Positions 27,757 to 43,100 of a stretch of 64,000 nucleotides of DNA are shown one piece after another; the first letter of the stretch is position 1; each line of letters starts with the position of its first letter. Location of the stretch: assembly GCF_003752465.1 (NCBI RefSeq), contig NZ_RKHJ01000001.1, positions 2,232,001-2,296,000 on the forward strand. The letters are read 5' to 3'. This stretch comes from Agrococcus jenensis (GTDB lineage: Bacteria > Actinomycetota > Actinomycetes > Actinomycetales > Microbacteriaceae). The notes below the pieces were generated by a model, which was not told the DNA's origin, did not search any database, and was given only the letters and a program-made list of their open reading frames with translations. The position numbers were made by a program, and so were the translations under genes.

Positions 27757-28392
27757 TCACGTGCGCTTCGTGGCCCGGATGCGCTCGATCGTGCCGAGCT
27801 TGAGCCGCTCGTCCTCGTCGATCGTGAATCCGGCCGCCTCGACGAGCGGGAGCTGGCGGCGGGTGAAGTGCTCTCCCGCGACCCGCACGCTCACGAGCTC
27901 GACCAGCCGCTGCGCCGCGCGCAGCGGCCACGCGCTGCTCGCCACGTGGTCGAGCAGCAACAGCCGGCCGCCTGGGACGAGCACGCGGTGCATCTCGCGG
28001 ATGGCGACGGCGGGCTGCGGGATGCTGCAGAGAGCGAGCGCGCAGACCACCGTGTCGAACGCGGCGTCGTCGACGGGCAGCCGCTGCGCATCCCCCTCGA
28101 GCAGCGTCACCGGGCGGCCGAGCGCCGCCATGCGCGAGCGCGCCTCGGCGAGCATCCCGGGGCTGATGTCGACGCCGGTGACGACCGCGTCGGCGGGGTA
28201 GTGCGGCACGTTCGTGCCGGTGCCGACCCCGACCTCGAGCACTCGGCCGACGGCCCGCGCGCCGAGCCACTCGCGGCCGCCGGTGAACCAGATGCGCTCG
28301 AGGCGCGCCATGCTCGCGTCGTAGTCGGGGGCCGCCCTGTCCCAGACCCGCCGCTGGAGGGCGGACGCGTCGTCGCCGTCGCGATGCGCCAT
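27757..28392 (-). CDS. Class I SAM-dependent methyltransferase (UbiE/Methyltransf_11 type)
   Basis: The 211-residue protein has the SAM-binding motif VLEVGVGTGTNVPHYP, the acidic ribose-binding loop VTGVDISPGML, a post-II motif LLEGDAQRLPVDDAAFDTVV and ALCSIPQPAVAIREMHRVLV with GGRLLLLDHV. This arrangement, including the final LPLVEAAGFTI...GTIERIRATK, is that of phospholipid or small-molecule methyltransferases of the PmtA/UbiE group. It is divergent from the F420-type reductase gene. The methyl acceptor is unknown. Start chosen at the ATG of MAHRDGDDASA. Confidence 0.85.
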   Translation of the reverse strand: MAHRDGDDASALQRRVWDRAAPDYDASMARLERIWFTGGREWLGARAVGRVLEVGVGTGTNVPHYPADAVVTGVDISPGMLAEARSRMAALGRPVTLLEGDAQRLPVDDAAFDTVVCALALCSIPQPAVAIREMHRVLVPGGRLLLLDHVASSAWPLRAAQRLVELVSVRVAGEHFTRRQLPLVEAAGFTIDEDERLKLGTIERIRATKRT

Positions 28393-28527
28393 GCCGTCCT
28401 CCTCCGCCTGCTGGGCCGCCGTGCAGCCGCATCCGCGATGGCGTCGAGCGAGCGGGCGCCCTACGCTGGCACCGTACGCCCGCCGCGGCCATCGTGGGGA
28501 GGCCGTGCGCTCACCCGGAGGTGCTCC

Positions 28528-28980
28528 ATGGCCACGACGCGGACGCCCGCACTCCCGCCGCGCTGGTTCGTCCGCGGCGCGTGGGTCGTGCACCGGCTGC
28601 TCTACCGCACGACCAGGCGCGGACTGCGGCGCGCGCGCCCCGGCGTCATGGGCATGCTGCGGCTGCGCACCACGGGTCGGCGCTCGGGCGAGGAGCGCAG
28701 CGCGATCATCGGCTACATGGAGCACGACGGCGCCTTCGTGACGTTGGCGATGAACGGCTGGGCGGCGGCCGACCCCGCCTGGTGGCTCAACCTGCAGGCG
28801 CACCCGGATGCGTGGGCCGACACCGTCGACGGCGTCGTGCGGGTGCGCGCGCGCGAGGCGCTCAGCGACGAGCGGGCGCAGCTGTGGGCGGCGATCGCGC
28901 GATTCGACGGCTGGGGAGACATCGCTGCGGCCGCGCAGCTGCGGCCGCACACCGCGGTCGTGGTGCTCGAGCGCCGCTGA
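28528..28980 (+). CDS. Nitroreductase-family deazaflavin (F420)-dependent oxidoreductase (DDN-like)
   Basis: The 150-residue split-beta-barrel protein shows the Ddn-family pattern: MGMLRLRTTGRRSGEERSAI, FVTLAMNGWAAADPAWWLNL, QAHPDAWADTV and REALSDERAQLWA. Ddn proteins use coenzyme F420H2 to reduce quinones or nitro compounds and are common in actinobacteria; whether this host makes F420 cannot be read here. GGAGG precedes the ATG at 28528. The N-terminal helix (FVRGAWVVHRLLYRTTRRG) is amphipathic and could associate with the membrane. Confidence 0.85.
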   Translation: MATTRTPALPPRWFVRGAWVVHRLLYRTTRRGLRRARPGVMGMLRLRTTGRRSGEERSAIIGYMEHDGAFVTLAMNGWAAADPAWWLNLQAHPDAWADTVDGVVRVRAREALSDERAQLWAAIARFDGWGDIAAAAQLRPHTAVVVLERR

Positions 28981-29000
28981 CGCGGCTCGCAGGGACGCGT

Positions 29001-29040
29001 CCGGCGCACGCACCAGAATGCCGGCGCACGCGTCAGAATG
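29001..29040 (+). repeat. Duplicated 20-bp promoter segment upstream of the GH13 gene
   Basis: Two direct copies of CCGGCGCACGC[AC/GT]CAGAATG abut each other (29001-29020, 29021-29040), differing at two bases. Each ends in CAGAATG. The second CAGAAT (29034-29039) is 6 nt before the ATG and fits a leaderless -10; the first duplicate would place a start 20 nt further upstream. Confidence 0.75.
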
Positions 29041-29045
29041 GGGGG

Positions 29046-30356
29046 ATGCGCGATCCCGAGCACTGGTCCCTGTCGGCGATGTGGTGGCACGTCTACCCGC
29101 TCGGCTTCACGGGCGCGCAGATCCGCGACCGGGACGATCCCGAGGGTGAGCCGATCGTGCACCGCCTGCCGCGGCTCGAGTCGTGGCTCGACCACGTCGT
29201 GGAGCTCGGGCTGAACGGCATCGCGCTCGGGCCGGTGTTCGAGAGCACCACGCACGGCTACGACACGACCGATCACTTCCGCATCGACCCGCGGCTCGGC
29301 GACGACGCCGACTTCGACAGGCTGATCGCGGCGGCGCACGAGCGCGGCATCCGCGTGCTGCTCGATGGCGTCTTCAACCACGTCGGGCGCGAGCACCCCG
29401 CGTTCCGGGCGGCGCTCGCGGATCCCGGCAGCGACGAGGCGGCGCTCTTCCAGCTCGGTGCGGGCGGCGACGCGGAGGTCTTCGAGGGCCACGAGGCGCT
29501 CGTGGCCCTCGACCACGGGGGCGACGCCGCCGCCGAGCTCGTGACGCGCGTCATGCTGCACTGGCTCGACCGCGGGATCGACGGCTGGCGGCTCGACGCC
29601 GCCTACAGCGTGCCGAGCGAGTTCTGGGCGCGCGTGCTGCCTGCGGTGCGCGAGCAGCACGCGGACGCGTGGTTCCTCGGCGAGGTCATCCACGGCGAGT
29701 ACGCCGAGATCGTCGAGTCGTCGACGATGGATGCCGTCACGCAGTACGAGCTGTGGCAGGGCATCTGGCACAGCCTCGCCGAGCGCAACCTCTTCGAGCT
29801 CGAGCACGCGATCGGCCGCCACAACGCACTGCTCGCGACGTTCGTGCCCTACACGTTCCTCGGCAACCACGACGTGACGCGCATCGCGACCTCGGTCGGC
29901 CGCGACCTCGTGCCGCACGCGCTCGCGGTGCTGTGCACGGTGGCGGGCATCCCGTCGGTGTACGCGGGCGACGAGCTGGGCCTCGAGGCCGTGAAGGAGG
30001 AGCGCTGGGGCGGGGACGACGCCATCCGGCCGGAGTTCCCCGAGCGGCCGACGCCCGCCGACGAGCTCGACGACGCGACCCGCAGCACGCTCGACCTGCA
30101 CCGCACCTTGATCGCGATCCGCCGCCGGCACCCGTGGCTGACGCGGGCGCACACCGACGTCGTCGTGGTCGAGAACGGCACGATCGTGCTGCGCACGGCG
30201 ACCGCGGATGCGGCGATCGTCACGGCGCTCAACGTCACCGACGCTGCGGTGCGCCTCCCCGTCGCCGACGCGACGCAGCTGCTCGCCGGCGACGGCGAGC
30301 TTGCGGGCGATCGCGTCGCGCTCCCGCCGCACGGCTGGGCGACGCTCAGCAGCTGA
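29046..30356 (+). CDS. Compact GH13 alpha-amylase-family enzyme
   Basis: The 436-residue protein has the GH13 (beta/alpha)8 core with conserved regions LLDGVFNHVGREH, GWRLDAAYS (nucleophile Asp184), WFLGEVIHG (acid/base Glu213) and FLGNHDVTRI (Asp276). It has no signal peptide and so should act on intracellular oligosaccharides. It is short for an amylase, with little domain B, and ends in a small domain C (TIVLRTATADAAIVTALN). The specificity may be for short maltooligosaccharides or alpha-glucosides. It is preceded by a duplicated promoter segment and followed by the 19-bp repeat array. It is distinct from the GH13_33 trehalose synthase at 24357. Confidence 0.87.
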   Translation: MRDPEHWSLSAMWWHVYPLGFTGAQIRDRDDPEGEPIVHRLPRLESWLDHVVELGLNGIALGPVFESTTHGYDTTDHFRIDPRLGDDADFDRLIAAAHERGIRVLLDGVFNHVGREHPAFRAALADPGSDEAALFQLGAGGDAEVFEGHEALVALDHGGDAAAELVTRVMLHWLDRGIDGWRLDAAYSVPSEFWARVLPAVREQHADAWFLGEVIHGEYAEIVESSTMDAVTQYELWQGIWHSLAERNLFELEHAIGRHNALLATFVPYTFLGNHDVTRIATSVGRDLVPHALAVLCTVAGIPSVYAGDELGLEAVKEERWGGDDAIRPEFPERPTPADELDDATRSTLDLHRTLIAIRRRHPWLTRAHTDVVVVENGTIVLRTATADAAIVTALNVTDAAVRLPVADATQLLAGDGELAGDRVALPPHGWATLSS

Positions 30357-30370
30357 CGGGCTGCGCCGGC

Positions 30371-30578
30371 TGCCGGCGCGACCGTCGACGGGTGCCCGCA
30401 CGCCCGACAGGTGCTCGCGCGCCCGAGAGGTGCTCGCGCGCCCGACGGGTGCCCGCGCGCCCGACAGGTGCCCGCGCGCCCGAGGGGTGCCCGCGCGCCC
30501 GAGGGGTGCCCTCGCGCCCGATGGGTGCCCGCGCGCCGCTACCTGTCGCGCGTAGGGCCACCTGTCGCGCCGACGCTG
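30371..30578 (+). repeat. 19-bp-period repeat array with inverted end (copy A)
   Basis: Eight direct units of about 19 bp begin with GGTG at 30391, 30410, 30429, 30448, 30467, 30486, 30505 and 30524. A typical unit is GGTGCCCGCGCGCCCGACA. They are followed by two units in the opposite orientation at 30541 and 30560 (ACCTGTCGCGCGTAGGGCC), so the array can fold into large hairpins. A left border TGCCGGCGCGACCGTCGACG precedes it. The same border, period and orientation change recur at 38676. The element starts 15 nt after the GH13 stop codon and ends just before the next gene's promoter. Confidence 0.8.
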
Positions 30579-30595
30579 CCGGTCGGATCGACTGC

Positions 30596-30601
30596 GAGGA
30601 T
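30596..30601 (+). promoter_or_regulatory. Candidate -10 of a leaderless promoter (GAGGAT)
   Basis: GAGGAT ends 6 nt before the GTG at 30608, identical to the arrangement before the alcohol dehydrogenase gene at 26686. Confidence 0.35.
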
Positions 30602-30607
30602 GGCCCA

Positions 30608-31162
30608 GTGCAGCGCGAAGCGGGGGCGGTCGTCGGCGAGGTGCGCGGCGGCGCGGACGCTGGTCGCGCGCTCGCACGCACGCTCGTCGCAGAGCTCGCG
30701 GGCGTCGACGCCGCATCCGTCTCGATCGTGCAGCGGTGCCCGGACTGCGGCGGTCCGCACGGGCGGCCCGTCGTGATGGCGCCGCCTGAGGCGCGGGGCG
30801 TCGCGGTCTCGCTCGCGCACGCAGGAGCGCGGCACGTCGCCGCAGCCCGGCGCGGCGGCCGCATCGGCGTCGATGCCGAGCTGCGCGAGGCCGCACCGGG
30901 TCGCGTGGAGGCGCTGCGCGGTCTGCTGCGCCGCGACGACGAGCTGCCCTGCGACGACGACCTGCTGCGGCGCTGGACGCGGATCGAGGCGGTGCTGAAG
31001 GCCGACGGCCGCGGCCTCCGCGTCGAGCCGGCGACTGTGGTGCTCGATGCCCGCGACGCTGGCCTCGTCGGCTCCGTGCCTGGCGCGGCCCGCGCCTACG
31101 ACCTCCACGACATCGACCTCGGACCCGGCCTCGTCGTCGGCCTCGCCATCGAGCGCGACTGA
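30608..31162 (+). CDS. 4'-phosphopantetheinyl transferase (Sfp/AcpT type)
   Basis: The 184-residue protein from GTG 30608 has the two signature motifs of the superfamily. The first is RIGVDAELREAA, in the place of GVDxE and binding Mg2+ and CoA. The second is the W(T/S)xxEAxxKxxG-like RRWTRIEAVLKADGRGL. An earlier PDCGGPHGRPVV segment matches the Sfp-type sCPDCGGPHGRP motif. It transfers phosphopantetheine from CoA to the serine of a carrier protein. The only carrier domain in the window is in the NRPS at 40144-44097 (Ser554), which makes that a plausible client. The gene is convergent with the Lrp gene and lies just after the 19-bp array. Confidence 0.85.
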   Translation: MQREAGAVVGEVRGGADAGRALARTLVAELAGVDAASVSIVQRCPDCGGPHGRPVVMAPPEARGVAVSLAHAGARHVAAARRGGRIGVDAELREAAPGRVEALRGLLRRDDELPCDDDLLRRWTRIEAVLKADGRGLRVEPATVVLDARDAGLVGSVPGAARAYDLHDIDLGPGLVVGLAIERD

Positions 31163-31172
31163 CGCCTGCCGC

Positions 31173-32213
31173 TCAGCGCCGCAGCACGCCCTCGACCTGC
31201 GCCCCGAGGTGGTGGCCGTCGCGGTCGATCCAGTAGCGGCGCTGCAGGCGCAGGGCGACGACGCTCGAGGTGGAGCGCACGTCGCGTCGGCTGCCGAGGT
31301 CGTCGAGCACGAATCGCGAGAGGTCGGCGGGACCTGCGAACACGGCGTAGAGGCTCACCGGCGCGTCGCCCGTGACGGTGCTCAGCAGCCGCACGCTCGG
31401 GTGGTCGACGAGCGAGTCGAGCAGCGACTGCACCGCTCGAGGCCGCACGTCGATCGAGACGACCGCGTTCAGCGGGTAGCCGACGAGCTCCGGCTGGATC
31501 TCGACGCGCGGCGAGACGGCACCGGTCGCCAGCAGCATCCGGATGGCCCGTGACGCCGTCGACGCGGAGGTGCCGACCTGCCGCGCCACCTCGGCCGCCG
31601 AGACCCGCGCGTTCGCGCCGAGCGCCCGCATGGTCTGGAACTCCAGCTCGGACAGGTCGTCGAGGCTCCGCAGCGGCGGCTCCGAGACCGGGGTGCGGTG
31701 CTGCTCGAGGGTGGCGACCTGCTCGTCGGCCAGCCGCTGGAACCGCCACGACTGGCCCACCTTGGCCGACTCGAGGATCATGCGGCTGTCGATCGCGCGC
31801 ACGCCCGGGATGGACGGGATCCGCTCGGTGAGCAGCTCCTCCGGATCGGAGCCGCGCAGGGGGTAGAGGTTGGCGTAGATGTCGGCCGGTCCGCTGGCGT
31901 GCATCGCGAACTGCACATCCGGGATGCGCAGCAGCTGCTCGAGCACCGCGCGCGACTCGCCGGGCGCCGAGGTGATCCAGAGCTCGAACGGGTTGCTCGA
32001 GGTGATGAGCTGCCACGCGTAGCGGCCGACGGTGCGGAGCAGATGGTCCTGCTGCATGCGCGCCAGCCGGCGGTTCGCGGTGCTCGTGGGCATGCCGAGG
32101 ACATCGGCGAGCACTGCCGTCGGCACGCGCGGCGCGATGTGCAGCGCGGCGACGATGTCGAGGTCGGTCGCGTCGAGGAGGGCCGGGAGCTCGCCGGGCG
32201 GGAAGCGCTGCAT
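31173..32213 (-). CDS. Lrp/AsnC-family transcriptional regulator with two HTH modules
   Basis: The 346-residue protein contains two AsnC-type helix-turn-helix domains: LDIVAALHIAPRVPTAVLAD / TSTANRRLARMQQDHLLRTV near the N-terminus and ELEFQTMRALGANARVSAAE / TSASTASRAIRMLLATGAV around residues 180-230. Between and after them lie Lrp-type ligand-binding alpha/beta folds. Such double proteins occur in actinobacteria and usually control an adjacent catabolic operon. It is divergent across 174 bp from the six-gene operon starting at 32388, which is the likely target. Start at ATG 32213; a GTG at 32246 is an alternative. The effector is probably the operon's substrate or an amino acid. Confidence 0.87.
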   Translation of the reverse strand: MQRFPPGELPALLDATDLDIVAALHIAPRVPTAVLADVLGMPTSTANRRLARMQQDHLLRTVGRYAWQLITSSNPFELWITSAPGESRAVLEQLLRIPDVQFAMHASGPADIYANLYPLRGSDPEELLTERIPSIPGVRAIDSRMILESAKVGQSWRFQRLADEQVATLEQHRTPVSEPPLRSLDDLSELEFQTMRALGANARVSAAEVARQVGTSASTASRAIRMLLATGAVSPRVEIQPELVGYPLNAVVSIDVRPRAVQSLLDSLVDHPSVRLLSTVTGDAPVSLYAVFAGPADLSRFVLDDLGSRRDVRSTSSVVALRLQRRYWIDRDGHHLGAQVEGVLRR

Positions 32214-32387
32214 GGCCTCACGATACCGAGGGCGCGGGGTCGTCACCGGAGCAGTTGGCGAAGATTGCCGTTACGTGCGCGAAACGTGATTGGAATGCCC
32301 ATGACGCTTGCGTCGCGCTACGGTTCTGCCTATAGTCGGCGGAGATGGTGACGCGGAAGCGGCATCGATCGCCTCGAGGGAGAGCAC
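32214..32387. promoter_or_regulatory. Divergent control region of the Lrp regulator and the catabolic operon
   Basis: The 174-bp gap includes a comparatively AT-rich core (about 32255-32340: GCCGTTACGTGCGCGAAACG, GATTGGAATG, GGTTCTGCCTATAGTCGG). CTATAG at about 32331 could be the -10 of the operon, giving a leader of roughly 45-50 nt. A sequence ACGTGCGCGAAACGT (32273-32287) has inverted ACGT ends and could be a regulator site. Assignment by eye only. Confidence 0.4.
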
Positions 32388-33287
32388 ATGGAATCGCAGC
32401 AGCCGTGGCAGTGGACCGAAGCGGAGTGGCGCTCGCACGTCGAGCACGTGCGCGCCGGCGCATCGCTCGTGAGCGACGACCCCGCAGCCCGATGGCCCGG
32501 AGGTGCGCGCGTGGCGGTCGCCCTGTCGTTCGACTCCGACCACGAGACGCCGTCGCTCCGCGACGGCGAGACGTCACCGGGCCGGATGGCCCAGGGCGAG
32601 TACGGCGCGCGCGTCGCGGTGCCGCGGATCCTCGAGCTGCTGCGCCGCCACGAGGCGCCCGCCTCGTTCTACATGCCCGCCGTCTGCGCGCTGCTGCGCC
32701 CCGACGAGGCGCCCGGCTACGTCGCCGCCGGTCATGAGCTCGCGGTGCACGGCTGGATCCACGAGCGCAACACGGCGCTCACGTACGAGGACGAGCTCGA
32801 CCTCGTCGGTCGTAGCCTCGACGTGCTCGAGTCGCAGACCGGTGTCCGACCCACCGGCATCCGCACGCCGTCGTGGGACTTCTCCGCGAGCACCCTGCGA
32901 GTCATCCGCGAGCTCGGGTTCGCGTACGACTCGTCGCTCATGGCCGACTCGGAGCCCTACGAGCTGCTCGAGCGCGGCGAGCGGACGGGCGTCGTCGAGA
33001 TCCCGGTCGAGTGGATCCGGGACGACGCGCCGTACCTGATGATGGACCGCTTCGGCGGCCTCCGCCCCCACATGCCGCCCCGCCAGCTGACGCAGATCTG
33101 GATCGACGAGTTCGATGCAGCGCGCGCGGAGGGCGGCCTCTTCCAGCTCACGATGCACCCGCACATCATCGGGCACCGCTCGCGGATCCGGATCCTGGAC
33201 GACCTCCTGGCCCACATCCGCTCCTTCGACGACGTCTGGATCGGCACGCACGCCGACCTCGCGTCGCACGTCCGCACCCTCCTCTGA
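32388..33287 (+). CDS. Polysaccharide deacetylase-superfamily hydrolase (HpPgdA / cyclic imidase type)
   Basis: The 299-residue metal-dependent hydrolase has the NodB-superfamily triad Asp49-Ser-Asp51 (LSFDSDHE), His121 and His125 (AVHGWIHERN), plus GIRTPSWDFS, the RTPxWDFS motif of the HpPgdA branch, and MHPHIIGHRSR. Members of this branch include Helicobacter PgdA, allantoinase PuuE and cyclic imide hydrolases, all cytoplasmic. It has no signal peptide, which argues against a peptidoglycan role. It opens an operon with a transporter and redox enzymes, so hydrolysis of an imported cyclic amide, imide or N-acyl compound is more plausible. GGGAG lies upstream of the ATG. Confidence 0.83.
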   Translation: MESQQPWQWTEAEWRSHVEHVRAGASLVSDDPAARWPGGARVAVALSFDSDHETPSLRDGETSPGRMAQGEYGARVAVPRILELLRRHEAPASFYMPAVCALLRPDEAPGYVAAGHELAVHGWIHERNTALTYEDELDLVGRSLDVLESQTGVRPTGIRTPSWDFSASTLRVIRELGFAYDSSLMADSEPYELLERGERTGVVEIPVEWIRDDAPYLMMDRFGGLRPHMPPRQLTQIWIDEFDAARAEGGLFQLTMHPHIIGHRSRIRILDDLLAHIRSFDDVWIGTHADLASHVRTLL

Positions 33288-33313
33288 CCCGCAGCACCTC
33301 GAGAGAAGCAGCC

Positions 33314-34627
33314 ATGACCACCACCATCAGCGAGACCGTCCACCAGACGAAGCTCAGCAAGAAGGGCCGCAAGGCCATCGTCGCTGGCAGCATCGGCAAC
33401 GCCGTCGAGTTCGTCGACTGGGCGATCTACTCGACCTTCTCGTCGATCTTCGCCCACCACTTCTTCCCGCCCGGCGATGACATCGCCGCACTGCTCTCCA
33501 CCCTCGCGATCTTCGCCGTCGGCTTCATCATGCGACCCGTCGGCGCGGCGGTCATGGGCTCGTACGCCGATCGCCACGGTCGCAAGCGAGGGCTGCTCTT
33601 CACGATCACCCTCATGGCGGTCGCCACCCTCGCGATCGGCCTCGCGCCGACGTACGAGCAGGTCGGCATCGCGGCGCCGCTGCTGCTCGTGCTCGCGCGC
33701 CTGGCGCAGGGCTTCGCAGCGGGCGGCGAGTTCGGCTCGGCCTCCGCCTTCCTGGTCGAGTCGGCCGCGCCGAAGCGCCGGGCGTTCGCCGGATCGTGGC
33801 AGCAGGTCTCGGTGGCCGCCGGCGTGCTCATCGCCTCCGGCGTCGGCACCGTCATCACCACGACGCTGCCGGACGACGCGATCGACAGCTACGGCTGGCG
33901 CATCGCCTTCATCTTCGCCGCGTCGCTCGGATTCGTCGGGCTGTGGCTGCGCCGCTCGGTCGAGGAGACCGACTCGTTCGCCACGGGCAAGCAGCGCGTG
34001 CAGCAGGCCGACTCGCCCCGTCGCCACAACGCCTTCGTCCGCATGATCGTCGACCACCCGGGTGCGAGCCTGCGTGTCTTCGGCATCACCATCGCCGGCA
34101 CGCTCCTCTACTACATGTGGGTCAACTTCATGCCGACGTACGCGTCGGTGACCACGGGCATCCCGCTGAACCTCGCCCTGCTCGCGAACGTCATCGCCAT
34201 GATCGTCTTCATCGTGCTGCTGCCGTTCGGAGGCTTGCTGTCGGACAAGATCGGTCGCAAGCCCACGATGGCGATGTTCGCCGGCGGCTTCCTGATCTTC
34301 GCCTGGCCTGCCTTCACCCTGCTGAACGGCGACTTCTGGACCCTGCTGGCCATCGAGCTCATCGGCGTCGTCCTGCTCGTCGGCTACTCGGCGAACTGCG
34401 CGGTCATCATGGCCGAGCAGTTCCCGCCGGAGGTCCGCGCCACCGGCATCGGCCTGCCCTACGCGCTCGCGGTCGCGATCTTCGGCGGCACGGCGCCCTA
34501 CGTCACCACGTGGATGAACACGAGCGGATTCGGCGACTGGGTGTGGGCGTACGCATCCGCGGCGGCCGCCATCGGCCTCGTCGTCTACCTGACGATGCCG
34601 GAGACCAAGGGCAAGGAGCTCGATTGA
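33314..34627 (+). CDS. MFS transporter, metabolite:H+ symporter (MHS) type
   Basis: The 437-residue membrane protein has 12 predicted helices and MHS-family marks: GNAVEFVDWAIYSTFSSIFA near the start, GSYADRHGRKRGLL between helices 2 and 3, ARLAQGFAAGGEFGSASAFL and LLSDKIGRKPTM in the second half. It ends with MPETKGKELD. MHS carriers (ShiA, KgtP, proline/betaine ProP) import organic acids or zwitterions with protons. It lies 26 nt after the hydrolase and overlaps the SDR start by one base (TGATG). It probably imports the substrate of this operon. Confidence 0.9.
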   Translation: MTTTISETVHQTKLSKKGRKAIVAGSIGNAVEFVDWAIYSTFSSIFAHHFFPPGDDIAALLSTLAIFAVGFIMRPVGAAVMGSYADRHGRKRGLLFTITLMAVATLAIGLAPTYEQVGIAAPLLLVLARLAQGFAAGGEFGSASAFLVESAAPKRRAFAGSWQQVSVAAGVLIASGVGTVITTTLPDDAIDSYGWRIAFIFAASLGFVGLWLRRSVEETDSFATGKQRVQQADSPRRHNAFVRMIVDHPGASLRVFGITIAGTLLYYMWVNFMPTYASVTTGIPLNLALLANVIAMIVFIVLLPFGGLLSDKIGRKPTMAMFAGGFLIFAWPAFTLLNGDFWTLLAIELIGVVLLVGYSANCAVIMAEQFPPEVRATGIGLPYALAVAIFGGTAPYVTTWMNTSGFGDWVWAYASAAAAIGLVVYLTMPETKGKELD

Positions 34628-35415
34628 TGCGCCACGTGCTCGTCACCGGCGCCGGCAGCGGGATCGGCAGGGAGGTCGCCATCGCGTTCGCGCGCGGCGG
34701 CGACGCCCTGACGCTCGTCGACCTGCACGCGGCACCGCTCGAGGAGACCGCGCAGGCCGTGCGCGCCGCCGGGGGCGCCTCGTGCGCCACCGTCGCGGCC
34801 GACCTGCGCGGCGAGCACGCGCACGACGAGGTGATGGACGCCGCCTGGGCGCACGCCCCCGTCGACGTGCTCGTCTCGAGCGCGGGCGTCTACCCGGCGA
34901 CGCCCTTCCTCGAGCTCGACGCGCGCACGTGGGACTTCGTGCTCGACGTCAACAGCCGAGCACCGGTGCTGCTCACGGTCGCCCTCGCCAAGCGGGCGAT
35001 CGCGGCGGGCAGGCAGGCGAGCGTCGTGAACATCTCGTCGGGCGCGGCGCTCCGCGCCCGGCCGGGAGCGGCGCCGTACTCGACGTCGAAGGCGGCGCTG
35101 GAGGCGGCGACGCGCGCCTCGGCGCTCGAGCTCGGCCAGCACGGCATCCGCGTGAACGCGGTCGCGCCCGGCTTCGTCGAGGTCGGCAGCGACGTCAACC
35201 CCGTCACCGAGGAGTACGCCGACGCCGTCGGGGGCACGCCGCTCGGCCGGCGGGGGAGACCGTCGGACATCGCGCGCGCGGTCGTCTGGATCGCGGGCGA
35301 CGAGGCGGAGTGGATCACCGGCGAGGTGCTGCGCGTGGACGGCGGATCGTCCACCGGCGCATGGCACCTGCCGCAGCATTGGACGGCCATCGGCCAGGAG
35401 GAGGGTCTCGCATGA
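34627..35415 (+). CDS. Short-chain dehydrogenase/reductase
   Basis: The 262-residue SDR shows the nucleotide-binding TGAGSGIGREVA (about 7-18), an Asp in VDLHAAP that favours NAD over NADP, the structural SSAGVY (in place of NNAG), and the catalytic Ser in VNISSGAAL with Tyr and Lys in PYSTSKAALEA. A proper C-terminus (VLRVDGGSSTGAWHLP) completes the classical type. It oxidises or reduces a hydroxy/keto intermediate. It overlaps the MFS stop by 1 nt and the next start by 4 nt (ATGA). Substrate unknown. Confidence 0.88.
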   Translation: MRHVLVTGAGSGIGREVAIAFARGGDALTLVDLHAAPLEETAQAVRAAGGASCATVAADLRGEHAHDEVMDAAWAHAPVDVLVSSAGVYPATPFLELDARTWDFVLDVNSRAPVLLTVALAKRAIAAGRQASVVNISSGAALRARPGAAPYSTSKAALEAATRASALELGQHGIRVNAVAPGFVEVGSDVNPVTEEYADAVGGTPLGRRGRPSDIARAVVWIAGDEAEWITGEVLRVDGGSSTGAWHLPQHWTAIGQEEGLA

Positions 35416-36419
35416 CCTCGCAGTACACGATCGTCGGCGCGGGCGCCATCGGGGGCACTCTCGCGGTGCACCTGCACCTCGCGGGAGCCGACGTGCAGCT
35501 CATCGACGCCGACGCAGCGCACGTCGCGGCCGTGCGCGAGCACGGCCTGCGCATCGAGCAGCCGAGCGGCGCGCTGCTCGCGAACCTGCCGATCAGCACC
35601 CCCGACGACGCGCCCGAGCAGCTCGGCGCCGTGCTGCTCGCGGTGAAGGCCCAGGCGACCGACGGCGTCGCCGCCTGGATCGCGCCGCGGCTCGCCGACG
35701 ACGGCTGGGTCGCGTCGATGCAGAACGGTCTCAACGAGGCGACGATCGCGTCGCACGTGGGCGCCGACCGGACCGTGGCCGCGTTCGTCGACCTCTTCGC
35801 CGACGTCATCGGCCCCGGGGTCGTGCAGGACGGCGGCATCGGCGCGATCGCCCTGGGCGAGCACGCAGGCCCCGTGAGCGACCGCGTGCGCACCCTCGCC
35901 CACGACCTCCGGCACTGGGGCGAGCCGATCGTCACCGACAACGTCGACGGCTTCCTCTGGTCGAAGCTCGGCTTCGGCGCGATGCTCGTCGCGACGGCGC
36001 TCGCCGACGCCGACATGGGCGACCTCATCGACCGGCACCGCAGGGGCATGCACGCGCTCGTGCGCGAGGTGCTGTCCGTCGCGACGGCGGAGGGCATCGC
36101 CCTCGAGGGGTTCGACGCCTTCGTGCCGGGCGACTACCTCGCCGGCGCCGCCGAGGCCGACGCCGCGACCGACGGCCTCGTCGCGTGGCTCGCCACGCAG
36201 ACGAAGAAGCGGTCCGGCATCTGGCGCGACATCGCCGTGCGCGGTCGTCGCACCGAGGTGCCGACGCAGTACGGACCGGTCGTGGCCGCGGGGCAGCGGC
36301 ACGGCATCCCGACGCCGCTCACCGCCTGGCTCGTGGACGCGATCGTGCGGCTCGAGACGGGCGCGATCGCGATGGACGAGGCGCACCTCGCCGAGCTCGA
36401 CGGGATGGCAGCAGCATGA
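35412..36419 (+). CDS. Ketopantoate reductase (ApbA/PanE)-family protein
   Basis: The 335-residue protein has an N-terminal dinucleotide fold (YTIVGAGAIGGTLAVHLHLA), the LLAVKAQATDG segment with the family's Lys, MQNGLNEA (the QNG motif of PanE) and a C-terminal helical domain with SKLGFGAMLVATALADADMG and KKRSGIWRDI. PanE reduces 2-dehydropantoate in pantothenate synthesis, but catabolic relatives reduce or oxidise other 2-keto or hydroxy acids. The operon context suggests a catabolic role. The sequence MGDLI and long C-terminus differ from housekeeping PanE. It is ATGA-coupled on both sides. Confidence 0.85.
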   Translation: MTSQYTIVGAGAIGGTLAVHLHLAGADVQLIDADAAHVAAVREHGLRIEQPSGALLANLPISTPDDAPEQLGAVLLAVKAQATDGVAAWIAPRLADDGWVASMQNGLNEATIASHVGADRTVAAFVDLFADVIGPGVVQDGGIGAIALGEHAGPVSDRVRTLAHDLRHWGEPIVTDNVDGFLWSKLGFGAMLVATALADADMGDLIDRHRRGMHALVREVLSVATAEGIALEGFDAFVPGDYLAGAAEADAATDGLVAWLATQTKKRSGIWRDIAVRGRRTEVPTQYGPVVAAGQRHGIPTPLTAWLVDAIVRLETGAIAMDEAHLAELDGMAAA

Positions 36420-37597
36420 GCGCGGTCCGCACGTACATCGAGGATGCGCGCGACGCGATGGTCGCCGACCTCGTCGCGTACCTCGAGCAGGAGACGCCCT
36501 CGGACGACCGCGCCGCGCTCGACGCGGGGCTCGACTGGGTGCGCGGCTGGGTCGCCGAGCGCCTGGGTGCGCCCGACCAGGAGCGGATCGTCGACGGCGG
36601 CCCCCACGGCGACATCGCGATCCTCGACATCGCCGCGAGCGGCGGCGCCGGGCAGGTGGCGATCCTCTGCCACTACGACACCGTCTGGCCGCTCGGCACG
36701 CTCGCCGGCTGGCCCGTCAGCATCGAGGGCGACCGGCTCACCGGGCCCGGCGCATTCGACATGAAGTCGGGGCTCGTGCAGGCGGTCTGGGCCATCCGCG
36801 CCGCCCGCGCCGCCGGGCTGCCGCTGCCCGCCATCCGTCTCGTGCTCAACGGCGACGAGGAGATCGGGTCGCCCGCCTCCCGCCCCGTGATCGAGGCCGA
36901 GGTCGTCGACTGCGACGCGGTGCTCGTCTTCGAGGCGAGCGCCGAGGGCGCGCTGAAGACCGCGCGGAAGGGCGTCGGCATCTTCGAGGTGACGGCACGC
37001 GGCATCGAGGGCCACGCGGGCCTCGACCCCGAGCGCGGCGTGAGCGCGATCGACGAGATCGCGCGGGTCGTGCTCGCGCTGCACGGCGCGAGCGACCTCG
37101 CCGCCGGCACGAGCGTCAACGTCGGCACGCTGCACGGCGGCTCGCGATCGAACGTGACGGCGGGCACCGCGACGGCGCTCGTCGACGTGCGCGTGTCGGA
37201 CGACGCCGAGCGCGCCAGGATCGACGCGCTGCTCGCCGAGCTCGCGCCGCACCGCGACGGCGCCGCCGTCGAGGTCGCCGGCGGCTGGAACCGCCCGGTG
37301 ATGCCGCGGTCCGACGGCACGGCGCGGCTGTTCGCGCTCGCCGAGTCGGCGGCGGAGGAGCTCGGCACCGTGGTGCGCGAGATCTCGGTCGGCGGCGCGA
37401 GCGACGGCAACTTCGCTGCAGCGCTCGGGCTGCCCGTCCTCGACGGCCTCGGCGCGGTCGGCGACGGCGCGCACGCGAGGCACGAGTGGATCAGCATCGA
37501 CGGGATGCTCGAGCGCAGCGCGATCGCGGCGCTCGTGCTGGGGCGGCTCGGGAGCGCCGAGCCCGTGGCCCAGGCGGCGTCGGCGGCGTCGCGGTGA
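36416..37597 (+). CDS. M20-family metallopeptidase/amidohydrolase (carboxypeptidase G2-like)
   Basis: The 393-residue di-zinc hydrolase has the M20 ligands His86 and Asp88 (CHYDTVWP), Asp115 (GAFDMKSGLV), the catalytic and bridging Glu148/Glu149 (NGDEEIGS) and a late HARHEWI histidine. The lid/dimerisation domain (HAGLDPERGVSAIDEIARVV, VNVGTLHGGSRSNV) matches glutamate carboxypeptidase (CPG2) relatives, which cleave N-acyl amino acids such as folate or N-carbamoyl compounds. It lacks a signal peptide. It could release an amino acid from an acylated or carbamoylated intermediate of this pathway. ATGA overlap upstream and GTGA overlap downstream. Confidence 0.88.
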   Translation: MSAVRTYIEDARDAMVADLVAYLEQETPSDDRAALDAGLDWVRGWVAERLGAPDQERIVDGGPHGDIAILDIAASGGAGQVAILCHYDTVWPLGTLAGWPVSIEGDRLTGPGAFDMKSGLVQAVWAIRAARAAGLPLPAIRLVLNGDEEIGSPASRPVIEAEVVDCDAVLVFEASAEGALKTARKGVGIFEVTARGIEGHAGLDPERGVSAIDEIARVVLALHGASDLAAGTSVNVGTLHGGSRSNVTAGTATALVDVRVSDDAERARIDALLAELAPHRDGAAVEVAGGWNRPVMPRSDGTARLFALAESAAEELGTVVREISVGGASDGNFAAALGLPVLDGLGAVGDGAHARHEWISIDGMLERSAIAALVLGRLGSAEPVAQAASAASR

Positions 37598-38667
37598 GCG
37601 CGCCGTCGATCACCGATCCGATCGAGGTGCGCGGCCTGCGCGTGCGCAACCGCATCTGGATCGCACCGATGTGCCAGTACTCGGTCATGGCCTACGACGG
37701 CGTCCCGACCGCCTGGCACCGGGTGCACTACGGCGCGCTCGCCTCCGGCGGCACGGGGATGCTCGTGGTCGAGGCGACGGCGATCGCGCCGGAGGGTCGG
37801 ATCACCCGGCAGGACACGGGTCTGTGGAACGACGAGCAGCGCGACGCCTGGCGGCCGATCGTCGACTTCGCGCATCAGGCGGGTGCCGCGATCGGAGTGC
37901 AGCTGAGCCACGCCGGCGCCAAGGCCGGCACCTTCGCCGGGTTCGGCAGGGACGGCGATCGCCGCGGCTCCGTGCCGATCGACGAGGGCGGCTGGCCGAC
38001 GGTCTCCGCGTCCGACGAGGCGATCCTCGGCCTCGCGGCGCCGCGGGCGCTCGCCACGAGCGAGCTGGACGGGATCGTCGCGGCCTTCGTCGCGGCTGCC
38101 CAGCGCGCGGTCGAGGCCGGCTTCGACGTCGTGGAGGTGCACGGCGCGCACGGCTACCTGCTGCACCAGTTCCTCTCGCCGCTGACCAACCGCCGCGTCG
38201 ACGGGTACGGCGGCGACCTCGCCGGGCGCTCGAGGCTGCTGCTCGACGTCGTGCGTGCCATCCGTGCCGAGCTGCCGGCGCTGCCGGTGCTCGTGCGCCT
38301 CTCGGCGACCGACTGGACCGACGGCGGGCTCGACGAGCAGCAGGCGGCGCAGGTCGCGGCGTGGGCGCTCGAGGCTGGCGCGGACTTCGTCGACGCGTCC
38401 TCCGGCGGGGTCGTGCTCGCCGAGATCCCGGTCGGCCCCGGCTACCAGGTGCACCTCGCCGAGCGCATCGCGGCGGAGGGCGTACCGGTGTCGGCCGTGG
38501 GCCTCATCGAGACCGCGGAGCAGGCGAACGCCGTGCTGCGCGGCGGCGTCGCGGCGGTCCGCGTCGGGCGAGCGGCGCTCCGCGACCCGAACCTGCCCAT
38601 CCGCTGGGCGGGCGAGCTCGGCGTCGACGTCGACTGGCATCCGCAGCAGTACCGGCGCGCGTACTGA
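37594..38667 (+). CDS. NADH:flavin oxidoreductase, old yellow enzyme family (YqjM/XenA-like)
   Basis: The 357-residue FMN enzyme starts at GTG 37594, overlapping the previous stop (GTGA). It has the OYE class III features IAPMCQYSVMAYDGVPTAWHR (the Cys26-type redox modulator of YqjM), the substrate-binding His/His pair in LSHAGAKA and VHGAHGYLLHQFLSPLTNRR, and C-terminal VGRAALRDPNLPIRWA. OYEs reduce activated C=C bonds in enals, enones, maleimides and nitro compounds. As the last gene of the operon it suggests the substrate or an intermediate contains an electron-poor alkene, or an aromatic ring that is dearomatised. The repeat element at 38676 follows directly. Confidence 0.88.
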   Translation: MSAPSITDPIEVRGLRVRNRIWIAPMCQYSVMAYDGVPTAWHRVHYGALASGGTGMLVVEATAIAPEGRITRQDTGLWNDEQRDAWRPIVDFAHQAGAAIGVQLSHAGAKAGTFAGFGRDGDRRGSVPIDEGGWPTVSASDEAILGLAAPRALATSELDGIVAAFVAAAQRAVEAGFDVVEVHGAHGYLLHQFLSPLTNRRVDGYGGDLAGRSRLLLDVVRAIRAELPALPVLVRLSATDWTDGGLDEQQAAQVAAWALEAGADFVDASSGGVVLAEIPVGPGYQVHLAERIAAEGVPVSAVGLIETAEQANAVLRGGVAAVRVGRAALRDPNLPIRWAGELGVDVDWHPQQYRRAY

Positions 38668-38675
38668 GCGACGCC

Positions 38676-38790
38676 TGCCGGCGTCACCGTCGCCGACGGG
38701 TGGCCGCGTGCGCGAGGGGTGGGCCCGCAGGCCCACCCGTCGCGGGTAGGCCCACCCGTCGCGGGTAGACCCACCTCGCGGGTGCGGTCC
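38676..38790 (+). repeat. 19-bp-period repeat with inverted half (copy B)
   Basis: The left border TGCCGGCGTCACCGTCGCC resembles that of copy A at 30371. Two forward units start at 38699 and 38718 (GGTGGCCGCGTGCGCGAGG type). Three units in the opposite orientation start at 38732, 38751 and 38770 (CCCACCCGTCGCGGGTAGG). Spacing is exactly 19 bp within each set. It begins 9 nt after the OYE stop codon and ends just before the convergent M1 peptidase stop at 38801, so it can act as a shared terminator. Confidence 0.78.
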
Positions 38791-38800
38791 CGCCCGCGCC

Positions 38801-40147
38801 TCAGCGTCGGAAGCGCCGCTTCCTGCCGCCGCGCTGCGGGAGTGGCGGCAGCGCCGTGCCGACGAGCCACGCGTCGAACAGCTCGTCGAGCGGCCGCTCC
38901 GCGATCTGCGCCGCGAGGCGCCGGAAGTCGTCCGAGGTGACCGTCGACGAGACGTGCAGCGCCGTCCAGTCGTGCAGCAGGCCGAAGAAGCGCACGTCGC
39001 CGAGCGCGAGGCGCAGCGCGTGCACGAGCAGCGCCCCCCGCTTGTAGACGCGGTCGTCGAACATGAGCGCGGGCCCCGGATCGCCCAGCACGATGTCCTG
39101 CGGCAGCGCCGCGAGCCGCTTGTGGTGGATGCGCGCGAGGGCGTCCGTCGACTCGCGACCGGCAGCCTCCGACCACAGCCACTCCGCGTAGCAGGCGAGT
39201 CCCTCGTTGAGCCAGATGTGCTGCCAGGCGGCCACCCCGACGCTGTTGCCGAACCACTGGTGCGCGAGCTCGTGCGCGACGAGCCGCTCCTCGACGCCCC
39301 TGCCGTCGATGTGGTTGGCCCCGAAGATCGCCGACGCGTGCGCCTCGAGCGGGATCTCCAGGTCGTCCTGCGTGACGATCACCGTGTAGTCGTCGAAGGG
39401 ATACGGCCCGAACCGCTCGACGAAGCACGCGAGCATCGCGGGCAGCGTCGCCAGGTCGGCGACCACTCGGCGCTCGAGCGCGGCGGGGTAGAAGGCGACC
39501 ACCGGCACCTCCGCGCCGGTCGTCGCGCGGCGCACGTAGCGGCCGATCTGCACGGTCGCGAGGTAGGTCGCGGCCGGCGTGCGGCACTCGAAGGTGCGGG
39601 TCGTGCGCCCGGACGACGTGCGCTCCTCGACGAGCGTGCCGGTCGCGACCGCCCGGTACGACTGCTCGGTGGTGACGCGGATGCGGTAGGTCGCCTTGTT
39701 CGACGGCCGGTCGTTGCACGGGAACCATGTCGGCGCGCCGGTGGGCTGCGACGCCACGATGACGCCGTCCTCGAGCTCCTCCCACCCGACGAGGCCCCAG
39801 CTCGTGCGCCGCGGCGCGGGCTGGCCGCCGTAGGCCACCTCCAGCTCGAACCGAGCCCCAGCCGGGATCGGCGTCGCGGGCCGGACGGTGACGTGCGGGC
39901 CGCGCGCGGTGTGCGGCAGTCGCGCCCCGTCGAGCGTCGCGCGGCTGACGCGCAGCCCGACGAGGTCGAGCACGATCGCGCGCAGCTCGGTCGTGGCCCG
40001 ACCCGTGATCCGCGCGACGCCGTCGAGCCGGTTGGTGGCCATCCGGTAGTCGATGGCGAGGTCGTAGTGCAGCGCATCCCACGCGACGTCGCCGGAGCCC
40101 GGCGCGTACGCGTCCACCGCTGGCCGAGCGCCGCTCGCGGGGCTCAC
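38801..40147 (-). CDS. M1-family metallopeptidase coupled to the NRPS
   Basis: The 448-residue protein from GTG 40147 has the M1 zinc site His292-Glu-Leu-Ala-His296 with Glu315 18 residues on (AHELAHQWFG, LNEGLACYAEW), an exopeptidase-like EIPLEAHASAI in place of GAMEN, and the catalytic tyrosine region in DRVYKRGALLVHAL. The N-terminal beta domain is present, but the large C-terminal helical domain of aminopeptidase N is missing, as in short leukotriene A4 hydrolase-like members. There is no signal peptide. Its GTG overlaps the stop of the Pls-type NRPS. Such M1-NRPS pairs recur in Microbacteriaceae, suggesting it processes or releases the peptide product. Confidence 0.85.
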   Translation of the reverse strand: MSPASGARPAVDAYAPGSGDVAWDALHYDLAIDYRMATNRLDGVARITGRATTELRAIVLDLVGLRVSRATLDGARLPHTARGPHVTVRPATPIPAGARFELEVAYGGQPAPRRTSWGLVGWEELEDGVIVASQPTGAPTWFPCNDRPSNKATYRIRVTTEQSYRAVATGTLVEERTSSGRTTRTFECRTPAATYLATVQIGRYVRRATTGAEVPVVAFYPAALERRVVADLATLPAMLACFVERFGPYPFDDYTVIVTQDDLEIPLEAHASAIFGANHIDGRGVEERLVAHELAHQWFGNSVGVAAWQHIWLNEGLACYAEWLWSEAAGRESTDALARIHHKRLAALPQDIVLGDPGPALMFDDRVYKRGALLVHALRLALGDVRFFGLLHDWTALHVSSTVTSDDFRRLAAQIAERPLDELFDAWLVGTALPPLPQRGGRKRRFRR

Positions 40148-43100
40148 CCGCTCACCGCGTGGTAGTCGGCGAAGGTGACCTCGCGCCACGGGCCGATCGG
40201 GTTGCCGCTCCAGCGGCTGCGGTCGGGCACGAGCTCGCCGCGCATGACGAGCGACGCTGGGCCGACCGTCGCGTGCTCCCCGATCGTCGCGGCGGGCAGG
40301 ATGACGCTGTGGGGCCCGAGCGTCGCACCGTGCTCGAGCACGACGGCGTCGATCGACATGATCCGGTCGTGGAACAGGTGCGTCTGCACGACGCAGCCGC
40401 GATTGACCGTCGCGGCGTCGCGCAGCGTCACGAGGTCGGCCTCCGGCAGCCAGTAGCTCTCGACCCAGACGCCGTCGCCGATCGTCGCGCCCAGGCTCCG
40501 CAGCCACCAGACCAGCGCGGGCGTGCCCGCCGCCGAGTGGGCGAACCACGGCGCCGCGACCATCTCGGTGAAGGTGTCGGCGACCTCGCTGCGCCACACG
40601 AACGACGACCAGAGCGGATGCTCGGCGACGCGGATGCGTCCGACGATCGCCCACTTCGCCGCGGTGCTCACGGCCGCGGCGACCGCGCCCGCGGCGAGCA
40701 TCACCACACCGCTGAGGAGCGCCGCCGCGAGGCCGCCCCAGGCATCCACGATCCAGAGCAGTGCGAGCATGACGGCGCCGCCCAGCGCGCACGTGACGAT
40801 GACGGGCACGATGCGGCACAGCTCCCACAGGGCGCGCGCCACCCGCAGTCGCGGGGGCGGCGAGTAGGTGCGCGAGTCGTCAGCCACGACCGCGGTGCGC
40901 CGCAGGGCGACGGGCGGCGAGCCGAGCCACGACGAGCCCTTCTTCGACTTGCGGGGCGCCGCCGAGAGCACCGCGACGAGCGCGTCGTTGGGGATGCGAT
41001 TGCCCGCGCCCGCCATCCCGGAGTTGCCGAGGAACGCGCGCTCGCCGATCTCGGCGTGGGCGATGCGCACCCAGCCGCCGCCGAGCTCGTAGGAGGCGAC
41101 GAGCGTGTCGTCGGCGAGGAACGCGCCGGAGTGGATCGTGGTCATCGTGGGCACGAGCAGCACCGTGGAGATCTCGGCGTCGCGGCCGACGCGCGCGCCG
41201 AGCAGTCGCAGCCAGGTGGGCGTCGCGAGGGAGGCGTACAGCGGGAAGAGCGCGGTGCGGGCCATGTCGAGCACGCGCTCCGTCGCCCAGACGCGCCAGC
41301 CGTTGGCGCTGTGCACCGGGAAGACGCCCTCGGTCATGCCGATCGCGAGCAGTCGCACGCTGAGCACGACGAGCGCGGCGAGCACGAGGCCGGCGACGAC
41401 CGTGGCGGGTGCGATCCAAGCGAGTGCGCGGAGGGCGACCTCGCCGAGCGACTCGGCACCGGCCACGCCGGCCGCCACCACCGCACCGCCGGCGATGAGC
41501 GCGAGCATCGGCACCAGCGACAGGCCGATCGCCGAGGCGCCGTACGCCCATGCCCAGCGCGCGTCGCGCGGCGGGCGCTCGGGTGCCCACCACGACTTCG
41601 CCGCGCCCACGCGGCTCGCCGGGGACCCCGCCCATCGCTCGCCGGAGCGCACGCGACCGAAGACCGCGGAACCCGGCGCGATGACCGCGTCCTTGCCGAT
41701 GCGGGTGCCGGGTGCGAGCGTCGAGCGCGCGCCCACGGCGCTGCGGGCGCCGATGCGGATCGCGCCGATGCGCACCACGTCGCCGTCGATCCAGTAGCCG
41801 CTGAGGTCGACCTCCGGCTCGATCGAGGCGCCGCGGCCCACGCGCAGCATGCCCGTCACGGGCGGCACGGCGTGCAGGTCGACGTCCTCGGCGATGCGGG
41901 CGCCCAGCGCCCGGGCATAGAGCGTGACCCAGGGCGCGCCCGCCAGGCTGACCGCGCCCACCTGCTGCGCCACCTGCTCGGCGAGCCAGAGGCGCAGGTG
42001 CACGCGACCGCCGCGCGGGTGGTCGCCCGCCTGCACGCCGCGCAGCAGCAGCCTCGCGCAGACGACGGCGATCGCCATGCGCCCGAACGGCGTCGCGAAG
42101 ACCGCGAGCCCGACGACGAGCAGCCACGGCTCGGCGGTGGGGAGCGCCTCGAAGCCGTCGAGGCCGCTCAGGATCGTGCTCGCGGTGAGCGCGGCGAGCA
42201 GCCAGCGCATCCCGCTGAGGATGAAGAGCGGCACGCCGAGGAGCGTCTGGATCCATTGCGTCCCGCGCGGGGTGCGCGTCACGTCGTGGGTCGAGGCCGG
42301 CTCCGGCGCACCGCCGCTCGCGCGTGCCGAGAGCTCGGCCGCCATCGCGCCGAGCCGCGGGTAGGCGTAGATGTCGGCGACCGTGAACTCGGGCGAGCGC
42401 GAGCGGATGCGCGTGACGAGCTGGGCGGCGGCGAGCGAGCCGCCGCCGAGCGCGAAGAAGTCGGCGTCGGCGCCGGAGGCCGGCACGCCGAGCACGGCCT
42501 GCCAGTCGGCGGCGAGCAGCCCGATCGCGGGGTCGGCGGCCGCCACGTCGGCTGCGTCGAGCGCCCCGGGCAGCGGCCAGGGGAGCGCGGCCTTGTCGAC
42601 CTTGCCCGAGATGCGGGTCGGCAGCTCGGGCATCGGTGCGAGCAGCGGCACCAGCGCAGCGGGCAGCTCCGCGCGGAGCCGGGCCAGCGCCGCCCCTCGG
42701 TCGAACGCCGCGACGTCGCAGCCGACGTAGCCGACGAGCACCTGGTTGCCCGCGTCGGTGCGCTGCACGACGACGGTCGACGCCTGCACGCCGGGCAGCT
42801 GCTGCAGCGCCGCCTCGATCTCACCGAGCTCGATCCGGCGGCCCCCCACCTTCACCTGGTCGTCGGCGCGACCCTGGAAGAAGAGTCCGTCGCGGTCGAA
42901 CCGCACGAGGTCGCCCGAGCGGTAGGCGCGGTCCCAGCCGAGCGACGGCAGCGGTGCGTACTGCTCGGCGTCCTTCGCGGGGTCGAGGTAGTGCGCGAGG
43001 CCGACGCCGCCGATGATGAGCTCGCCGATGTCGCCGTCGGCGACCGGCCGACCTCGGTCGTCGACCACCGCGAGGTCCCAGCCGTCGAGCGGCAGCCCGA

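What the first reader, a model, noticed from the sequence alone, without database searches (positions are those of the whole stretch)
30371..38790. Two intergenic elements built from 19-bp-period units that switch orientation
At 30371-30578 eight forward units of about 19 bp (GGTGCCCGCGCGCCCGACA type) are followed by two units in reverse. At 38676-38790 two forward units are followed by three reverse units, again exactly 19 bp apart. Both start with a related border (TGCCGGCGnnACCGTCG) and both lie 9-15 nt after a plus-strand stop codon. Direct repeats followed by inverted ones of one unit are unlike a plain terminator or a CRISPR array. They could be a lineage-specific dispersed element, a processive terminator, or a protein-binding platform. 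The units and spacing are seen directly; function is inference.
Basis: partly seen in the sequence, partly recalled or inferred. Interest (0 to 1): 0.7.

Follow-up and report, generated by a model that had tools for sequence, protein, structure and literature searches.

The report
Genus-specific repeated hairpins at gene ends
Both repeats belong to a family of strongly folding DNA elements, built from copies of one short motif at fixed distances and sitting mostly just after gene ends in one bacterial genus, where they probably act as two-way stop signals for gene reading.

Summary
Both window sites carry a 9-mer, CGASNGGTR, on a rigid lattice: 19 bp between same-strand copies, 21 bp between the facing pair. 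Element I is 8 forward + 2 reverse units; J is 2 + 3. They belong to a dispersed family whose commonest form is exactly 68 bp, two forward plus two reverse units. With up to 3 mismatches it occurs at 78 places in 14 of 24 genomes of the genus (16 here), against 0 for the reversed control, and in none of 195 genomes of 84 other genera of the family. Of 52 elements of four or more units with sound flanking gene calls, 27 lie between convergent and 4 between divergent genes. Dyad positions covary: score 0.308 against 0.153 in shuffles, 0 of 500. Folding is stable (median z -5.3), without a T-tract. One of the two bases inside each half-site pairs only at chance at its outer place. Best reading: bidirectional 3'-end hairpin (terminator-like) elements that also carry a fixed, perhaps protein-read, lattice. 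Function is inferred; there were no RNA data. No description was found in Rfam (window stretch) or in nine searches of an open-access library.

The parts
   Evidence: read; folded
30386..30567 (.). element I: eight forward and two reverse 9-mers on the 19/21/19 lattice
30500..30567 (.). 68-bp two-plus-two core of element I
   Evidence: G000:C1:2262500-2262567, 1 mismatch
38670..38685 (.). small separate hairpin GACGCC-TGCC-GGCGTC before element J
   Evidence: read; folded
38694..38780 (.). element J: two forward and three reverse 9-mers (last one degenerate)
   Evidence: the reverse run also
38694..38761 (.). 68-bp two-plus-two core of element J
   Evidence: G000:C1:2270694-2270761, 0 mismatches
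29046..30356 (+). alpha-amylase family gene upstream of I; its stop lies 29 nt before the first unit
   Evidence: gene call; Pfam PF00128; distance
30608..31162 (+). gene downstream of I (looks like a 4'-phosphopantetheinyl transferase; named from its sequence by recall)
   Evidence: gene call
37594..38667 (+). gene upstream of J (looks like an Old Yellow Enzyme type oxidoreductase; recall); stop 26 nt before the first unit
   Evidence: gene call; distance
38801..40117 (-). convergent gene on the other side of J (looks like an M1 metallopeptidase; recall); stop 20 nt from the element
   Evidence: gene call; distance

Best explanation
The elements are bidirectional 3'-end hairpins. Transcribed from either side, the palindrome folds into one long imperfect stem-loop, mostly within a few tens of nucleotides after the stop codon; this halts or releases RNA polymerase and/or shields the mRNA 3' end, so that one DNA segment serves both members of a convergent pair. 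The stem is built from a genus-specific sequence module (CGASNGGTR plus a 10-bp spacer) and grows by tandem duplication of that 19-bp module, as in I and J. Shown: family, lattice, position after stop codons, covariation, predicted stability. Inferred: that the RNA form is the working form, that it terminates or protects, and that arrays arose by duplication.
For: Position: 52 elements of four or more units with sound gene calls: 27 convergent, 11 and 10 tandem, 4 divergent; the window's own 24 gaps of 68 bp or more are 3 convergent and 10 divergent (Fisher p 0.001 for convergent and 0.0009 for divergent; some of the 52 share one gap and one pair lies in a duplicated segment, so they are not all independent). 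Stop-to-element distance: median 26 nt, 53 of 75 at most 45 nt; 20 of the 21 sound tandem cases lie nearer the upstream stop than the next start. None of 60 elements lay inside a called gene. Structure: 69 elements align without gaps; 79.8% of dyad cells pair against 69.6% in shuffles and 36-44% when slid; covariation score 0.308 vs 0.153, 0 of 500 shuffles; RNAalifold keeps 12 pairs, 8 with changes on both sides. Plus strand: median energy -46.8 kcal/mol, median z -5.3, z below -1.5 in 65 of 69, 1555 of 1770 predicted pairs are the dyad pairs. Two relatives without a lattice element carry a long plain hairpin after the gene that precedes J (L276 z -4.9, L277 z -6.2). Literature: poly-U is not needed at many predicted terminators (PMC8355165, section 13 read).
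Against: No T-tract: T fraction 0.08-0.12 downstream against 0.133 background, and the classical terminator scan finds none at 28000-41000. A terminator does not require fixed CGA and GGTR letters or an exact 19/21/19 spacing. Position 4/65 pairs only at chance (CC 17, CG 17, GC 17, GG 16), which pure stem selection would not leave. The number of pairs with changes on both sides is not above shuffles (23 vs 21.6, 113 of 500). Within-genome shuffles leave only the spacer block significant (z 3.3; other blocks -0.6 to 0.9), so part of the covariation is shared subtype, and cells count sequences, not events. The other 7 of 9 relatives' ends after the gene preceding J, and 3 of 3 after the amylase gene (G019 included, z -0.6, although a 7-bp-armed hairpin is visible there), fold no better, or only weakly better (z -1.7 at most), than shuffled DNA: plain hairpins are not the rule at these places. 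Four divergent elements (three in own cluster L115, one in G006 L127) and L154, nearer the next start (24 nt) than the stop (100 nt), do not fit. Ten of the window's eleven convergent gene pairs have no such element. No RNA data.
Confidence: 0.55

Rival explanations
1. Double-stranded binding platform: a genus-specific protein reads CGA..GGTR half-sites at fixed 19/21/19 spacing and marks, insulates or blocks at convergent gene ends (as proteins do at BIMEs); the hairpin is secondary.
For: CGA and GGT letters almost fixed while spacers change freely (138 G and 138 A of 144 units at positions 2 and 3, 144 of 144 G at position 7; units were chosen with at most 1 mismatch, so partly by construction). 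In 36 elements the S and N places are neither matched across the dyad nor shared among units of one element beyond within-genome shuffles (z -1.6 to 1.8). Spacing exact: 45 of 48 centres have a unit 19 bp upstream and 44 of 48 one 19 bp downstream (most stretches were fetched with a 19-bp pattern, so partly by construction).
Against: Spacer and R positions covary across the dyad, which duplex binding does not explain; in the larger set of 69 the inner N (24-45) pairs above shuffles (62% vs 38%, z 4.5); no candidate protein was found; 96 of the 98 called flanking genes share no common family.
Confidence: 0.23
2. REP- or MITE-like non-autonomous mobile palindromes that settle in 3' regions because other places are harmful.
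For: Dispersed, extragenic, copy number uneven between close relatives (16 in G000, 0 in G007 and G008); element I is missing at the orthologous site of G019.
Against: No Y1 (RAYT-type) transposase in any of 30 genomes searched, though CGTC-type REPs also lack one (PMC3733652, passages); no near-identical copies within a genome among 47 two-plus-two elements of seven genomes: best 54-60 of 68, except one identical pair with mirrored flanks, a duplicated segment, in G021; no clean insertion with target duplication seen at the G019 site; at four orthologous sites G018 and G023 both keep an element.
Confidence: 0.16
3. Neutral local satellites made by replication slippage in GC-rich DNA.
For: Expanded arrays of similar units exist: I; 2 forward + 7 reverse in own L116; 10 forward in G006 L123.
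Against: The same 68-bp two-plus-two plan and the same 9-mer recur in 14 of 24 genomes of the genus, with pairing kept.
Confidence: 0.04
4. CRISPR-like array.
For: Direct repeats at regular spacing.
Against: Unit length equals the period, no unique spacers; orientation reverses.
Confidence: 0.01

Closest known systems
REP / BIME (repetitive extragenic palindromes and their mosaics)
   Same: Dispersed extragenic palindromes, composite arrays with reversing orientation; proposed roles in termination, mRNA stability and protein binding (abstract and passages of PMC2817692 and PMC3733652).
   Different: No Y1 transposase in 30 genomes; 68 bp instead of 20-40; no unpaired GTAG or CGTC end tag seen as a family feature; built from a 19-bp direct-repeat module; at most 16 copies per genome rather than usually more than 100.
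Bidirectional intrinsic terminators and hairpin clusters without poly-U
   Same: Hairpins soon after stop codons, shared by convergent genes, compensatory changes in stems (PMC8355165: abstract and section 13; PMC5381666: passages).
   Different: To my knowledge those hairpins need no common sequence; here one sequence module with fixed spacing is shared within a genus.
Terminators built from DNA uptake sequences (PMC1852404, search listing only; details recalled)
   Same: A short dispersed motif used in inverted pairs as a terminator.
   Different: Recalled uptake motifs number hundreds to thousands and lie in genes too; here the lattice motif is found as a few intergenic elements.

Membership tests
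REP/BIME with RAYT | Y1 (REP-associated tyrosine) transposase in the genome (not required of CGTC-type REPs, PMC3733652) | tested here: not met
   PF01797: 0 of 30 genomes incl. own; controls rang in 5 of 14
REP/BIME with RAYT | unpaired GTAG or CGTC tag at one end of a 20-40 bp palindrome | tested here: not met
   by inspection of the alignment of 69 elements: 68 bp, ends CGA/TCG that pair with each other; definition from PMC3733652 passages
REP/BIME with RAYT | extragenic, dispersed, repeated | tested here: met
Intrinsic (Rho-independent) terminator | stable hairpin soon after the stop codon | tested here: met
   (predicted fold)
Intrinsic (Rho-independent) terminator | T-tract after the hairpin | tested here: not met
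   T fraction below background; 0 hits in scan of 28000-41000
Intrinsic (Rho-independent) terminator | ends transcription | not testable with these tools
   no RNA data
CRISPR array | unique spacers between repeats | tested here: not met
Known RNA family | match to an Rfam model | tested here: not met
   0 matches at E up to 1 in window 28000-41000, both strands; relatives' elements were not scanned
MITE-type mobile element | clean empty sites or recent near-identical copies | tested here: inconclusive
   one empty orthologous site without clean boundary; no near-identical copies except inside one duplicated segment

The most novel reading that the evidence does not exclude
A two-layer gene-end element: a genus-specific protein reads a rigid 19/21/19-bp lattice of CGA-SN-GGTR half-sites, while the same DNA, once transcribed or extruded, must fold into a matched hairpin; together they act as a two-way barrier between convergent genes, and array length tunes its strength.
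Probability: 0.25. Interest if true: 0.75.

Novelty: new variant of a known kind. Interest (0 to 1): 0.52.

Why it matters
How very GC-rich actinobacteria end transcription without T-tracts and keep convergent genes apart is, to my knowledge, poorly settled. A small, sharply defined family, ten to sixteen per genome in four of 24 genomes and not found in ten others, offers natural with/without comparisons. It also separates two kinds of constraint in one element: letters kept whatever the pairing, and pairs kept whatever the letters.

Tried and rejected
RAYT/REP origin: no Y1 transposase in 30 genomes. Partner gene beside the elements: 96 of 98 called flanking proteins scanned (two left out as copies, L145); no family shared by more than 4 (NCBIfam) or 3 (Pfam) of them; the gene inside the own cluster L115 has no Pfam hit. 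Mobile carriers: the strict 68-bp pattern, no mismatch allowed, is absent from IMG/VR; J gave no match in plasmids and I none in phages by blastn. Recent inverted duplication as the sole source of symmetry: set aside because position 4-65 is random and S/N do not match across the dyad within genomes. Border hairpin as part of the family: rejected. Lattice element as stand-in for a plain hairpin at the same gene end: my first impression; folding supports it at only 2 of 12 relatives' ends, so it now carries little weight, and I lowered the best explanation from 0.58 to 0.55 and raised the platform and mobile rivals by 0.01 each.

Gene calls: my own codon-usage caller was used. Two of 54 elements of four or more units were dropped before the final count for unsound flanks (L135, L156); of these the L156 call looks like a shadow frame. 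One search shows '-' rows reverse-complemented, so their printed coordinates are not genome coordinates.

Papers: searches found 0 papers; one search found 9, unrelated by title and abstract start; some searches gave the terminator, REP and uptake papers cited. PMC12306157: one passage seen.
Full report
OBSERVATION. Expressed through the 9-mer CGASNGGTR (at most one mismatch), I (30386-30567) has eight forward units 19 bp apart, a facing step of 21 bp, and two reverse units; J (38694-38780) has two forward and three reverse, the last degenerate. Tandem Repeats Finder gives period 19 at both. They are the only lattice elements of the window.

FAMILY. The window lies at 2232001-2296000 of a 2.96-Mb genome. 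Two-unit patterns recur there: 13 hits against 0 for the reversed control, 30 against 0 for a shorter form; by contrast the plain 12-mer CGCGACGGGTGG, 10 against 6, is no enrichment worth the name, so the signal lies in the lattice. With a free gap of 8-30 between facing motifs, 7 of the 8 forward matches in 24 genomes have exactly 12 bases and one has 30. Relatives showed the commonest form: forward pair at x, reverse pair at x+40 (seven genomes), a fixed 68-bp unit CGASNGGTR-N10-CGASNGGTR-N12-YACCNSTCG-N10-YACCNSTCG. In all 24 genomes of the genus held, with up to 3 mismatches: 78 places in 14 genomes (G000 16, G006 14, G018 11, G023 10, G001 6, G004 6, G021 4, G019 3, G003 2, G010 2, and one each in G014-G017), reversed control 0 in all 24. 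In 199 genomes drawn from the family, 85 genera, only this genus scored (3 of the 4 genomes drawn from it, 0 of 195 others). Another genus could use a different motif on the same plan; that was not tested. Copy number does not follow the gene tree smoothly: G000 16, its sister G019 3 (65% complete), the next pair G007 and G008 0 (one gene, 16 genomes).

ARCHITECTURE. In the window plus 52 fetched stretches there are 60 elements of three or more units: 36 are two plus two, five 2+3, five 2+4; the other 14 include 8+2 (I), 2+7, 5+0 and 10+0. Among 48 centres, 45 have a unit exactly 19 bp upstream and 44 exactly 19 bp downstream; exact 9-mers in the own-genome stretches are spaced mainly 19, 38, 57 (same strand; 51 of 54 pairs within 70 bp) and 21, 40, 59 (facing; 38 of 40). 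Most stretches were chosen with a 19-bp pattern, so the 19 is partly by construction; the 12-base centre is not. Likewise the near-fixed letters of the 9-mer are partly a result of the search; what is not is that the pattern occurs at all while its mirror does not.

PLACE. For the 54 elements of four or more units I checked the flanking gene calls by codon-position G+C and kept 52: 27 convergent, 11 and 10 tandem, 4 divergent. Gaps of 68 bp or more in the window: 3 convergent, 10 divergent, 11 tandem of 24; Fisher p 0.001 and 0.0009 (the baseline is one window of one genome and some elements share a gap, so read these as a guide). Distance from stop codon to element: median 26 nt, 53 of 75 at most 45. 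In the 11 sound '--' cases the element is always nearer the upstream stop; in the 10 '++' cases 9 of 10 (exception L154). The four divergent cases are three elements of one own-genome cluster (L115) and one in a region of G006 with similar flanks (L127).

FOLD. The 69 distinct two-plus-two sequences held align without gaps (78 places were counted, the rest were not held or are copies). With all 32 dyad pairs counted, 79.8% of cells pair (shuffles 69.6%, slid 36-44%), covariation 0.308 vs 0.153, 0 of 500 shuffles; the count of pairs with changes on both sides, 23 vs 21.6, is not above shuffles (113 of 500). Strong pairs are 9-60, 10-59, 17-52, 18-51, 19-50, 28-41, 29-40, 32-37 and 33-36, some with C-G, G-C and A-T types. 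Position 4-65 is random: CC 17, CG 17, GC 17, GG 16; 23-46, 5-64 and 11-13 are weak or nil; the inner N, 24-45, pairs above shuffles (62% vs 38%). So the symmetry is not simply a copied arm. Within-genome shuffles of 36 elements leave only the spacer block significant (z 3.3): part of the signal is shared subtype. Folding of the plus strand: median -46.8 kcal/mol, median z -5.3, 65 of 69 below -1.5; no T enrichment downstream. The 68-bp cores of I and J fold at -40.8 (z -2.6) and -57.3 kcal/mol (z -6.1, simple shuffles).

CHANGE OVER TIME. G018 and G023 (84-89% identical flanks) keep elements at four shared places (the others were not traced). At one, 59 of 68 bases agree and all four GGTA of G018 are GGTG in G023; at two (L133/L156, L135/L155) the inner part has switched subtype while the outer motifs are largely kept; at the fourth 54 of 68 agree. 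No recent copies inside a genome among 47 elements of seven genomes (best 54-60 of 68; one identical pair in G021 has mirrored flanks, in an assembly given 8% contamination). Element I is missing in G019, the closest genome by identity (88% over the amylase gene): its gap to the next gene is 44 nt against 251 nt here. J lies where, relative to G019, G014, G020 and G021, a 7.6-kb gene group separates two genes that are close convergent neighbours there. Whether I was gained here or lost there cannot be told: among the matches listed I saw no outgroup that keeps the neighbourhood.

MECHANISM. The position after stop codons on both strands and the preserved pairing point to 3'-end function: termination and/or end protection, in both directions. 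Two relatives carry a strong plain hairpin at a corresponding gene end (L276, L277), but ten other ends of relatives do not, so this is weak support. All of this is inference. The fixed letters CGA and GGTR with exact spacing ask for something more, and a sequence-specific protein is the simplest addition; no candidate was found.

KNOWN OR NOT. Rfam: no match in window 28000-41000. Open-access library, nine searches: nothing seen that describes this family; subscription journals are mostly not held. It works like a REP/BIME or a bidirectional terminator, but fails REP membership (no Y1 transposase, no tag, other size) and lacks the T-tract of a classical terminator.

Noticed in passing
window 17400-17470: Three nearly perfect copies of a 24-bp unit (CGCATCGCGCCGGTGTCGTCGGGT) inside a small minus-strand gene call (17381-17632).
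   Followed up: no
window 31163-38800: A 7.6-kb gene group (regulator to Old Yellow Enzyme type oxidoreductase, names by recall) separates two genes that are close convergent neighbours in G019, G014, G020 and G021; relatives of its end genes lie elsewhere in G009 and G010.
   Followed up: partly
L115 2573-4240 (G000:C1:1474572-1476239): Cluster of several lattice elements around a gene with no Pfam hit, near an IMP dehydrogenase gene (recall); a similar-looking gene beside an element in G018 (L133).
   Followed up: partly
L123 2381-2560 (G006:C1): Ten forward 19-bp units, many identical, the longest one-way array seen.
   Followed up: no
L056 about 1425-1481 (G023): A different inverted repeat (GGTCTCGAGACG ... 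CTCCTCGACCA) lies directly beside a lattice element; by recall such repeats are common in this bacterial family.
   Followed up: no
L029 1281-1436: Long simple repeat of GGCTCC/GGCTCG-type hexamers.
   Followed up: no
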